Source: Candidatus Korarchaeum sp. (GTDB lineage Archaea; Korarchaeota; Korarchaeia; Korarchaeales; Korarchaeaceae). From it: a DNA stretch of 64,000 nt. Positions 14,833 to 55,173 of the stretch are shown one piece after another; positions within the stretch are counted from its first letter, which is position 1, and the number at the start of each line of letters is the position of its first letter. Location: the NCBI GenBank assembly GCA_038888615.1, contig JAWAID010000001.1, positions 310,001 to 374,000 on the forward strand, in the 5' to 3' direction. The notes beneath the pieces were generated by a model that was not told the DNA's origin, did not search any database, and was given only the letters and a program-made list of their open reading frames with translations. The translations under genes and the position numbers were made by a program.

Positions 14833-15167
14833 GGGTTCTGGGCTAAGTATGGATAAGTATCCATACTTAGCCCTTGGGACTCACCAGCCTCCCGATTATC
14901 GGCCCCCATCAGGGCAAACCCGCTCCGAGCCCTCATCAGCTCTGAAGAGCCTAGGGCTTAGAGAAAGACCCTCCATCTGAATGCAGCATTTAGCTGCCTA
15001 TCCTCAACCCGTAGCTCCTTTCGGGGCATTGACCATCCCACATCCGGAGCATAGGGTTGAGTCACCTGCACCCCCCATCTTCTTATTAGTCTTTTTAAAA
15101 ACTATCCCATCTACCTTCATATTTCTATACTTAGACCTACCTATCTTGGAACTGCTGATGACGGCGA
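14833..15167 (-). mobile_element. Shrunken IS605/IS1341-type element (copy B): left end, tnpB scrap, omega-RNA-like right end
   Basis: Read on the minus strand, the left end (CGCCGTCATCAGCAGTTCC, 15167 down) is followed by an internal deletion, then the broken zinc-ribbon tail of TnpB (AATGCCCCGAAAGG at about 15025; DRQLNAAF near 14990). After the lost stop codon region comes about 120 bases almost identical to copies at 16.5 and 53.4 kb, and a 16-bp terminal palindrome at 14840-14873. The element ends near 14833 at CAGAACCCC. Transposase TnpA is absent. Confidence 0.8.
14840..14873. repeat. Perfect terminal palindrome of element B
   Basis: Two 16-base arms (GGGCTAAGTATGGATA and its complement) are separated by two bases. 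It sits just inside the right boundary, where IS200/IS605 elements carry the hairpin recognised by TnpA. Copy D has an imperfect version and copy A a different sequence that still folds. Confidence 0.85.
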
Positions 15168-15335
15168 CTATCGGAGGAAGGGATTACTTTCGATAATTTT
15201 GTACGTTGTGATATCATTGAAAAATGAGTTGAATGCGGTTTCATCAACTCTCGCTCAGAGCGTTAGCGATCACAATAATGTTTCACTCAGCGATCCCTTA
15301 CGGAGAACTCCCGTTCACCTATTTATCGCAGTTAA

Positions 15336-15524
15336 TTACCCACATCTCCCCACCCTCATATTCTCCTTTAATTTTTTCGGACTCAATTCAGCTGCTTGGG
15401 CTTCCTCTTCCGTGCCTCTCATTCTCATTGCCTTGAGTTGAAAAAGGTAGATTACTAGCTTCAGCCTCTCATCGATCTCCTTCAGTAGGTCTTCGATCAT
15501 CCTGTTCACTGCCTCCTCACTCAT
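15336..15524 (-). CDS. Small helical protein, paralog of its upstream neighbour
   Basis: The product (62 residues from ATG 15524) starts MSEEAVNRMIEDLLKEIDE and continues RLKLVIYLFQLKAMRMRG. This pattern repeats that of the neighbour at 15517-15717 (VNERIRSLLERI, then KLKYLLFLYQLR), so the two are probably duplicated genes. Start and upstream stop overlap by eight bases. No known family is recognised; small paired helical proteins of this kind might be antitoxin-like or complex subunits, which is a guess. Confidence 0.6.
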   Translation of the reverse strand: MSEEAVNRMIEDLLKEIDERLKLVIYLFQLKAMRMRGTEEEAQAAELSPKKLKENMRVGRCG

Positions 15525-15717
15525 CGACCTCCACCTCCCCTGAGTCAATCGATTCTATCAACCCAATCAGCTCCTCTAAACGCATCCTCTCCGGTATTCT
15601 TAGCTGATAGAGGAAGAGTAAGTACTTAAGCTTCCTCTCTATCCTCTCCAACAGGCTCCTGATCCTTTCATTCACCGGCTCCCCTGCCACTACTACCGCT
15701 TCCCCTACTGTGATCAT
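15517..15717 (-). CDS. Small helical protein, paralog of its downstream neighbour
   Basis: The 66-residue product has the core VNERIRSLLERIERKLKYLL followed by FLYQLRIPERM and an acidic tail (ESIDSGEVEVDE). ATG 15717 is preceded by GGAAGGTGAG overlapping the stop of the upstream gene. It is predicted all-helical, with a hydrophobic face LLFLYQL. It lies between two TnpB element remnants. Function unknown. Confidence 0.62.
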   Translation of the reverse strand: MITVGEAVVVAGEPVNERIRSLLERIERKLKYLLFLYQLRIPERMRLEELIGLIESIDSGEVEVDE

Positions 15718-15721
15718 ATGC

Positions 15722-15940
15722 TCACCTTCCCAACATTGGTTCGGAAGATGAGATCTCGCAAAGGTTCATCCTCCTATGTGGGTTATGAGTGAAGCAATTC
15801 AACGTGAAAGTCTCTGTCCTGACTCCCATGTCCTCCTCGATGGGATCCTCACTACGATCTGCTGTTTTCACATTCTCACCTTCACCTGATGGGAAAAGGG
15901 GGTTGAAAGCCACGGACTCGGTCGGTACCATGCCTGTCAT
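15722..15940 (-). CDS. Small unknown protein leading a three-gene cassette
   Basis: The 72-residue product (MTGMVPTESVAFNP start) has no recognised motif; the C-terminal part holds CFTHNPHRRMNLCEIS with two Cys and two His, which might bind a metal. A TATA-like AAATTTATAAAG at 15967-15980 lies about 30 bases upstream, so ATG 15940 or ATG 15931 (with GAGGATGA) could be near-leaderless starts. Its stop abuts the ribosome-binding site of the next gene. Reality of the gene is supported by promoter and spacing, not by homology. Confidence 0.45.
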   Translation of the reverse strand: MTGMVPTESVAFNPLFPSGEGENVKTADRSEDPIEEDMGVRTETFTLNCFTHNPHRRMNLCEISSSEPMLGR

Positions 15941-15966
15941 CCTCTAACACATCTACGGGGGGTATT

Positions 15967-15980
15967 TCTTTATAAATTTT
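15967..15980 (-). promoter_or_regulatory. TATA box of the three-gene small-protein cassette
   Basis: On the minus strand the sequence AAAATTTATAAAG is a good archaeal TATA box. A transcription start about 25 bases downstream would fall at roughly 15945, just before the first ATG at 15940. Confidence 0.6.
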
Positions 15981-16304
15981 TCTCTAAATTCGCATTAGAT
16001 GTCGAAATTAACAATCAAAACGCGTATAATACTGAAGGTAATAACAAAATAATTGGCAATTGTGGCACATAATTACAGAGATTGAAGAAGATGTGTGAGC
16101 AAGGACACTAACCGAAGACAATGAGAGGGTCTGAGCGCTGGTCGTAAACAAAGATGATGAAGGAGCTATTAAATACAGACAGTAGCGCTAACTGAAGTTA
16201 AGAGGACAATGACCTGAACGGTGGGAGCGACATACAAATAGAGGTAATCAAGGGAGAGGTTCTGAACTACATAGCTATGTAGCTCCTGAGATAGTAGGTA
16301 GTCC
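15981..16304. other. Gene-free stretch with a short palindrome
   Basis: No complete gene is seen. The segment ends with a possible fragment reading KGEVLNYIAM before a stop at about 16281. The palindrome CTACATAG/CTATGTAG lies at 16267-16282 within it (slightly longer imperfect arms 16264-16285). It could be a scrap of a coding sequence or an element end. Confidence 0.4.
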
Positions 16305-16375
16305 CCTCCTATCGGATCAGAATCGCTTTTGACTCATAAGTTCCTTGAAGAACCTTAAGCTTGAAGTAAGACTTC

Positions 16376-16684
16376 CGCCCTCGCAGCAGTTTCAGAATAG
16401 ATAGATTTGAATAGACATAGGGGGCTGTCGAGCGTGGTGATCCTCAACCCTACGAGTAAAAGATGCTCCAGATGTGGGATGATCAATGCCCCGAAGGGAG
16501 CTTAAGAATGCGGGTTGATAGGCAGCTAAATGCTGCATTCAGATGGAGGGTCTTTCTCTAAGCACTAGGCTCTTCAGAGCTGATGAGGGCTCGGAGCGGG
16601 TTCGCCCTGACGGGGGCCGATGATAAAGAGGCTGGTGGGCCCCAAGAGCTGCGTGAGTCTATAAGACTACTTAGCTCAGAACCC
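16376..16684 (+). mobile_element. Shrunken IS605/IS1341-type element (copy A)
   Basis: The left end CGCCCTCGCAGCAGTTTC (16376 on) matches copies B and D. An internal deletion removes most of tnpB. What remains reads TSKRCSRCGMINAPKGA (16457-16504), a stop and frameshift, then DRQLNAAFRWR, the zinc-ribbon tail of TnpB, with the stop at about 16559. The following 120 bases are the conserved right end. The terminal hairpin here has a different sequence (AGTCT-ATA-AGACT within GAGCT/AGCTC) but still folds. The boundary is fixed by the empty site at 19341-19347. Confidence 0.85.
16560..16684 (+). ncRNA. Omega-RNA-like scaffold of element A (orphan)
   Basis: This stretch after the tnpB stop is nearly identical to the minus-strand segments at 14834-14960 and 53312-53440, including GCTCGGAGCGGGTT, GGGGGCCGAT and AGGCTG. 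The small hairpin GCTCT/AGAGC is replaced in copy D by AGCTC/GAGCT, a compensated change. In TnpB systems the guide RNA comes from the 3' end of tnpB and the right end, with the guide just outside. Here the guide would begin near AAAGATATAC. Expression is not shown. Confidence 0.55.
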
Positions 16685-19271: not shown

Positions 19272-19493
19272 CCCTCTTATCGGATCAAAATAGCTTTTGA
19301 CTCATGAGCTCTTGGAGAACCTTGAGCTTGAAGTAGGACTCCCAACTAAAGATATACTTCATATTTACCATTCACACCGTAGTCAGGGGTCATCACGATC
19401 CTCTATCTTAGAGCGGCTGACGAGTATGTTTCACGACGGGACAGTTAGCGCTGCTCGGTAGAACGGTTTCCGGTCAACTCTATGGCCTCTGTT
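19272..19493. repeat. Long direct repeat, copy 2 (empty site for element A)
   Basis: This copy aligns with 16305-16866 without the 310-base TnpB-derived element. The junction reads GGACTCCCAACTAAAGATAT at 19336-19355. Its right edge matches the last bases of the gene at 16843 (AGAGGCCATAG on the minus strand), but upstream of that no similarity to the gene remains. Confidence 0.8.
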
Positions 19494-53093: not shown

Positions 53094-53311
53094 CTCTAAG
53101 ATCGCCTCATTCAGAGATGGGTAGACTGTTCGCCCCTCCGGTACGCTACCTGTTTGCAAGCTAGACTATGCAGAACGCACCCTAAGTTCATTGTCTCAGC
53201 GGGAAAGATTATGCTTCCTCCATGATCCCTATGATATAGGAGGTCACTGGCTTGGAGATCTGAGAGAGCTCATCCGATCGATGAGTACTGATTTTAACGA
53301 TCTCCTCACTA

Positions 53312-53440
53312 GGGTTCTGAGCTAAGCATGGATAAGTATATCCATCTTAGCCCTTGGGGCTCATCAGCCTCTCGATCATCGGCCCCCGTCAGGGTGAACC
53401 CGCTCCGAGCCATAAGCTCCTCGAAGAGCTTAGGGCTTGG
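53312..53440 (-). ncRNA. Omega-RNA-like scaffold of element D (orphan)
   Basis: The segment keeps CTCGGAGCGGGTT, CCCTGACGGGGGCCGAT and AGGCTGATGAGCCCC of the other copies. The small hairpin is AGCTC-TTCGAG-GAGCT, a compensated variant of copy A. The flank that would be the guide begins TAGTGAGGAGATCG outward from 53310. Confidence 0.5.
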
Positions 53441-53683
53441 AGAAAGACCCTCCATCCGAAGGAAGGCAGCGTTAAGCTACCTATCCATCCTCAACCCGCA
53501 TCTGCATTCGTAAACTCCTTTCGGGGCATTGATCTTTCCACATCGGAGCACCTTTTGCTCGTATCCTTAGGGTTGAGGATCACAACACTCGACTTATATG
53601 CCATAAGAGACCGTATGATCTTCCAGTCGCTCTTCACAACTTTTCTATTATGCTTTCTCGATTTACTGAACATCCCTCCTTCC

Positions 53684-53893
53684 TTAAATTCTCGAAACCA
53701 TCATTAACTTATCCCTCAACCGTTTCTTGAACTCCCCACTTTTGGGTATTACTGGGCTGCGTCCACCGTGTTTCCACCTGATCTCAGCCCATATCCCATC
53801 TAAAGCTCTCTGAAGCAGCAGTCTATAGTCCTCAGGGAACCCTGAGACATCGTAGCTATGCTTGGTGCTGTAAGCTCTGTAGTTCACTGACAT
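53684..53893 (-). pseudogene. N-terminal fragment of TnpB
   Basis: The fragment reads YRAYSTKHSYDVSGFPEDYR and ends GEFKKRLRDKLM before a stop; archaeal TnpB proteins start in this way. About 230 central residues, including the RuvC Asp and Glu, are gone. It tells that the family is TnpB rather than another zinc-ribbon protein. Confidence 0.8.
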
Positions 53894-54082
53894 TCAGCTT
53901 CCCATCAACTTACCTTTTTAAAATTATCCTCATCTATTCTACATTTTTGTACTTATCTATCCATTTTGAAACTGCTGAAGGAGGCGATTAAGTGTAACTG
54001 AGCATAGTGTAAATATCAAAAAGGAATCCGAATTCTTGGACCCTGAGAAAGAGAGTCTTGAGCATGACCCACACCTGACCAG

Positions 54083-54830: not shown

Positions 54831-55173
54831 GGGTCTTCATTTGAGCCCGAGGCTAGGGATCTCCCAAATGAATCCCTCGAGTCGAGGGCCGATGAAGACT
54901 TGAAGAGTGTTCACCCTGACGAGGGAGGAGGCTTGTGAGGGGTCCGATGAACTCTAGAGGGACCCGAGACCCGTGAACCTCGAGGCTATGCAGCCCGCTT
55001 AGGATTACATAGCCCAGAACCCTCCACCCGGATGCAAGCTCGTGTTCCTTTCGGGGCATCACCCTCTAAATATTTGGAGAGTTTTGAGACCTTAGTATAC
55101 CTGAATGAAGCTTTTTAAGGCAACTACCTGCGTTACTCGGCTCCACTTATTCTGGAACTGCCGGCAGCGGCGG
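54831..55173. mobile_element. Nested, decayed IS605/IS1341-type copies (E)
   Basis: Two opposite remnants are interleaved. Plus strand 54911-55023 has a scaffold relic (TCACCCTGACGAGG) and a right-end hairpin GGCTATG/CATAGCC (54984-55014), ending CAGAACCC at 55023. Minus strand 55173-55025 has a left end (CGCCGCTGCCGGCAGTTCC) and a zinc-ribbon scrap (ATGCCCCGAAAGG). One probably inserted into the other. An inverted repeat TCATTTG/CAAATGA is at the left edge (54838-54872). Confidence 0.6.

What the first reader, a model, noticed from the sequence alone, without database searches (positions are those of the whole stretch)
14833..16684. Orphan omega-RNA-like right ends kept after TnpB was lost
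Copies B (14833-15167, minus), A (16376-16684, plus) and D (53311-53986, minus) each lost most of tnpB, and TnpA is absent, yet about 120 bases after the tnpB stop stay almost identical. The small hairpin changes with compensation (GCTCT/AGAGC in A and B, AGCTC/GAGCT in D), and the terminal hairpin of A differs in sequence but still folds. Each copy ends in CAGAACCC and then a different flank. Known TnpB systems make a guide RNA exactly from this part, with the flank as guide. Such RNAs could be served by a TnpB elsewhere in the genome or used for something else; they could also just be young relics.
Basis: partly seen in the sequence, partly recalled or inferred. Interest (0 to 1): 0.78.

Follow-up and report, generated by a model that had tools for sequence, protein, structure and literature searches.

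The report
tnpB-less IS607 elements keeping guide-RNA ends
The three right ends are leftovers and non-autonomous copies of an archaeal IS607-type jumping gene; each still carries the DNA for the transposon's guide RNA, but in this genome that RNA looks inherited and decaying, not in use.

Summary
The three copies are real insertions with shared ends (GCC... left, AACCC right), and the genome holds about 30 related right ends. The right end is the guide-RNA (omega-RNA/reRNA) module of an archaeal IS607-family transposon. In tnpB-bearing relatives from several archaeal phyla it has strongly covarying helices (15 of 35 pairs with double changes; 0/500 shuffles), and the tnpB frame there runs almost to the element end. 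TnpA is missing from the window but not from the genome: one intact IS607 serine recombinase sits about 92 kb beyond it in an element with the same ends. A and B belong to two short subfamilies (5 and 6 copies), each with one deletion joint, so tnpB-less forms have moved. D is a tnpB relic. Among this genome's copies there is no excess covariation, and in the tnpB-less ones the upstream helix changes as fast as its loop. No intact TnpB exists and no flank (guide) has a second target. Best reading: trans-mobilised MITE-like elements and relics with a vestigial omega-RNA. Use in trans is unlikely, not excluded.

The parts
16377..16684 (+). Copy A: short (tnpB-less) IS607-derived element, subfamily 1 (L001-L005 share one deletion joint)
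   Evidence: Ends GCC...AACCC; full-length homologues with different flanks; element-free paralogue of its flanks at 19272-19459
16540..16684 (+). Omega-RNA-like module of copy A
   Evidence: Covariance model R1 hit G000:C1:326540-326684, E 9e-35, whole model
16556..16596 (+). Helix H1 of copy A (CTCTAAGCA / GGCTCGGAG, two mismatches)
   Evidence: same helix covaries strongly in tnpB-bearing relatives
16598..16603 (+). GGGTTC, 5' arm of the closing helix H2; 3' arm GAACCC at 16679-16684
   Evidence: RNAalifold consensus in three sub-alignments
16646..16677 (+). Terminal hairpin H6 of copy A (partly degenerate)
14833..15165 (-). Copy B: short (tnpB-less) element, subfamily 2 (L006, L008, L010, L013, L015, L018 share one deletion joint)
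14833..14979 (-). Omega-RNA-like module of copy B
   Evidence: R1 hit G000:C1:324833-324979, E 1.8e-34
53312..53985 (-). Copy D: tnpB relic with internal deletions and frameshifts
   Evidence: Translation in three frames; sub-threshold PF07282 match with 3 stops
53312..53458 (-). Omega-RNA-like module of copy D
   Evidence: R1 hit G000:C1:363312-363458, E 1.7e-28
54865..55022 (+). Fourth, truncated copy of the module; no left end seen
   Evidence: R1 hit G000:C1:364865-365022, E 6e-25; sequence
19272..19459 (+). Element-free paralogue of the flanks of copy A (empty site)
   Evidence: 82% identity across the joined flanks

Best explanation
A, B and D derive from an archaeal IS607-family transposon (serine recombinase TnpA plus TnpB, with a guide RNA encoded at the 3' end of tnpB and the right end). 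A and B are MITE-like non-autonomous forms: tnpB was lost by internal deletion, both ends stayed, and the short forms were copied to new sites, most likely in trans by an IS607 TnpA such as the one intact copy elsewhere in this genome. D is a deleted, frameshifted tnpB relic. The guide-RNA scaffold is inherited from the parent. Its last ~45 bp (terminal hairpin, AACCC end) stay because, by inference, the transposase needs the end; the rest is hitchhiking and decaying. Shown by sequence: shared ends, deletion joints, empty sites, intact TnpA gene, no intact TnpB, covariation in tnpB-bearing relatives, none in excess among these copies. Inferred: mobilisation in trans, the need of TnpA for the end, absence of RNA function.
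For: About 30 right ends in the genome. Two short subfamilies with single deletion joints and unrelated flanks. Intact TnpA at C1:466026-466604 inside an element with matching left and right ends: NF033518 IS607 transposase 213.8 bits, cut-off 110, with a MerR-type domain, related to the solved ISC1926 TnpA catalytic domain and MJ0014. No Y1 TnpA. Element-free sites: paralogue of A's flanks in the window, and the L010 site in a same-genus genome. All tnpB copies frameshifted or cut; no hit over the NF040570 cut-off. Covariation strong in relatives, not in excess here. H1: 0.71 of differing pair-cells still paired in relatives, 0.38 in the short copies.
Against: The body of the omega-RNA is present in nearly all short copies; minimal elements without it are few (L024a, one locus), so some selection for it cannot be ruled out. 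The terminal hairpin keeps pairing with double changes. No transposition was observed. Copies are related by descent, so the pair counts are not independent events.
Confidence: 0.85

Rival explanations
1. Working orphan omega-RNAs: short elements transcribe a guide RNA that a TnpB supplied in trans (from another strain, element or earlier copy) uses, so that the tnpB-less elements are retained at their donor sites.
For: Module intact enough for whole-model hits; flank follows the scaffold exactly as a guide would; two incomplete genomes of the same family have many right ends and no TnpA hit (G018, G019), so the pattern recurs.
Against: No intact TnpB here; no excess covariation; 10 of 21 copies unpaired at H1 pair 21-55; no second match for any guide in the genome.
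Confidence: 0.08
2. The conserved structure is a DNA-level transposase recognition end only, and no RNA was ever made from this module.
For: Terminal hairpin and AACCC are among the best-kept parts.
Against: H1 and H4 covary well inside the tnpB reading frame in relatives; tested TnpBs make a reRNA from exactly this place (PMC8612924, PMC11061315); left- and right-end motifs were not coordinated by hairpin type.
Confidence: 0.05
3. Domesticated host regulatory RNAs unrelated to transposition.
For: None direct.
Against: Only 4 of 24 family genomes match by DNA; the A and L010 sites have element-free counterparts; copies multiplied with unrelated flanks.
Confidence: 0.02

Closest known systems
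IS607 family transposons (IS607, ISC1926, ISC1904)
   Same: Serine recombinase TnpA with MerR-type head, tnpB overlapping the tnpA end, CC (GG on the other strand) at both ends as in PMC6188088
   Different: A, B and D lack tnpA and intact tnpB; the tnpB-bearing relatives have Gln at the RuvC-III Asp position
TnpB reRNA / omega-RNA (ISDra2, PMC8612924; IS607 reRNA with RAGATH-18, PMC11061315)
   Same: Encoded by the tnpB 3' end plus right end, structured, flank in guide position
   Different: No Rfam match at gathering score, so not RAGATH-18 or sot by that test; here without a TnpB
PATEs of Haloquadratum (PMC3119063)
   Same: Transposase-free elements, some by core deletion of a transposon, palindrome near the end, multiplied in an archaeal genome
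   Different: PATEs come from IS605-type elements, these from an IS607-type element

Membership tests
IS607 transposon derivatives | Parent element with IS607 serine recombinase | tested here: met
IS607 transposon derivatives | CC/GG at both ends | tested here: met
   GCC at the left end of nearly all of the 21 copies checked (L005 reads GCCC); right end CCC in all but L003, L005 and L012
IS607 transposon derivatives | Insertion without target duplication | tested here: inconclusive
   Empty sites found but diverged at the joint
IS200/IS605 derivatives | Y1 (HUH) TnpA | tested here: not met
   No PF01797 hit in the genome
Omega-RNA/reRNA | Located at tnpB 3' end and right end, followed by variable flank | tested here: met
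Omega-RNA/reRNA | Conserved secondary structure with compensatory change (in tnpB-bearing relatives) | tested here: met
Omega-RNA/reRNA | Transcript bound and used by TnpB | not testable with these tools
   No RNA or protein data
Functional orphan omega-RNA | Intact TnpB available in the genome | tested here: not met
Functional orphan omega-RNA | Continued compensatory change in tnpB-less copies | tested here: not met
   (terminal hairpin excepted)
MITE/PATE-like non-autonomous element | Several full-length copies sharing one internal deletion, both ends kept, different flanks | tested here: met

The most novel reading that the evidence does not exclude
The short elements are parasites of a parasite: they keep their own guide RNA so that TnpB made by a partner element protects them at their donor sites, a two-part RNA-guided retention system for non-autonomous IS607 elements.
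Probability: 0.07. Interest if true: 0.75.

Novelty: new member of a known kind. Interest (0 to 1): 0.36.

Why it matters
It documents an IS607 omega-RNA family not found by Rfam, with clear covariation across several archaeal phyla, and shows that tnpB-less, guide-RNA-bearing elements multiply. That makes it directly testable whether non-autonomous elements gain from TnpB in trans. The relaxed upstream helix argues that here they do not.

Tried and rejected
Compensation in the small hairpin of A, B, D: same pairs in every copy that keeps it. Y1/IS605 origin: no Y1 TnpA. Intact TnpB elsewhere in the genome: none. Second targets for 26 flanks: none beyond a 19-nt chance hit, E 0.8. Left-end/right-end motif matching by hairpin type as a sign of TnpA specificity: additive only, no coordination. 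A first choice of helix H5 columns was misaligned and corrected. Rfam at E<=1 gave only sot0042 at 19 bits, far below cut-off and elsewhere in L103. Paper searches found no report of this family, but the library is partial.

Full report
WHAT IS THERE. The window is G000:C1:310001-374000 of a 1.67 Mb two-contig genome, archaeal by its RNase P RNA. Copies A, B and D share a left end (GCC, then CAGCAGTTYCAARATAG) and a right end (hairpin, then CAGAACCC), with unrelated flanks. With A as query the genome gives 33 matches. With a covariance model it gives 30, including a fourth, truncated copy in the window at 54865-55022.

PARENT ELEMENT. At G000:C1 about 465940-467755 (L041) lies an element with the same left end, an intact 201-aa serine recombinase and a tnpB broken by frameshifts, ending in the same hairpin and GGAACCC. 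The recombinase is an IS607 TnpA by NCBIfam (213.8 bits, cut-off 110), with resolvase and MerR-type domains, related to the solved ISC1926 TnpA catalytic domain and MJ0014. There is no Y1 transposase. It is the only TnpA of this kind found in the genome. IS607 elements have GG at their termini and target GG (PMC6188088), which fits GCC...AACCC read on the other strand. Elements of this family with open tnpB frames occur in Bathyarchaeota, Hadesarchaea and Methanomethylicota records, and related elements in Sulfolobales and other archaeal records.

THE RIGHT END IS A GUIDE-RNA MODULE. In relatives the tnpB frame runs to about 13 nt before the element end (L077, L078, L082, L086), so the '120 bases after the stop' are coding in open-frame copies. 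RNAalifold gives the same closing helix GGGTTC/GAACCC in three separate sub-alignments. In ten non-G000 sequences 96.4% of pair cells are standard pairs against 88.7% shuffled, and 15 of 35 pairs have double changes against 7.1; no shuffle of 500 and no slid version reaches these values. The upstream helix H1 reads CTCCAAGC/GCTTGGAG, CTCCATCCC/GGGATGGAG or CCACGACCC/GGGTCGTGG in different genomes. This is the place and build of TnpB reRNA (PMC8612924, PMC11061315). No Rfam family matches at its threshold.

ARE THE ORPHANS UNDER SELECTION? In 21 copies of this genome 3 pairs have double changes against 2.6 shuffled (255 of 500 shuffles reach it), and ten copies are unpaired at H1 pair 21-55. 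In the 15 tnpB-less copies H1 stems differ by 0.188 per site and their loop by 0.144; of differing pair-cells 0.38 stay paired and 0.01 by double change, against 0.71 and 0.47 in relatives. The closing helix and terminal hairpin are kept better, but they reach the transposon end. These are pairwise counts on related sequences, so they are not independent events.

MOVEMENT WITHOUT TNPB. Five copies (A, L002-L005) share one deletion joint, six (B, L008, L010, L013, L015, L018) another, and homology stops at the ends. A paralogous, element-free version of A's flanks is at window 19272-19459 (82% identity), and the L010 site is element-free in a same-genus genome. By DNA only 4 of 24 family genomes match. 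So tnpB-less forms multiplied, and the two sites that could be checked have element-free counterparts. Mobilisation in trans by TnpA is inferred.

NO TNPB, NO TARGETS. Every tnpB found in the genome is frameshifted or cut, and none passes the TnpB family cut-off. None of 26 flanks used as guides has a second match beyond chance. The tnpB breaks are many and differ between copies, but assembly errors cannot be fully excluded.

VERDICT. MITE-like and relic IS607 copies with a vestigial omega-RNA, closest in kind to PATEs (PMC3119063). Working use in trans is possible but unlikely (0.08).

Noticed in passing
L077, L082, L086, L195, L226, L227 (tnpB); L041 and the tnpB relics of G000: TnpBs of this clade carry Gln (DRQ) where ISDra2 TnpB has the third RuvC Asp in the alignment, in open frames; dN is well below dS where dS is measurable (mostly saturated). 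Sister TnpBs L224 and L225 have DRD. Either an unusual active site or TnpBs that bind without cutting.
   Followed up: partly
G018, G019, G020, G024: Other genomes of the same phylum also hold 9-13 model hits, and in G018 and G019 no TnpA was found (both incomplete assemblies), so the many-ends pattern recurs.
   Followed up: partly
L024, about 1421-1552 and up to 1856: Two very short right-end copies in tandem, one about 130 bp with both ends and no omega-RNA body.
   Followed up: no
window 55044-55085 (-): A further tnpB zinc-ribbon-like fragment next to the truncated fourth copy.
   Followed up: no
L224-L227, L230 and other loci, terminal hairpins: In other genomes of the phylum the last hairpin has quite different sequences but is still followed by GAACCC.
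   Followed up: partly
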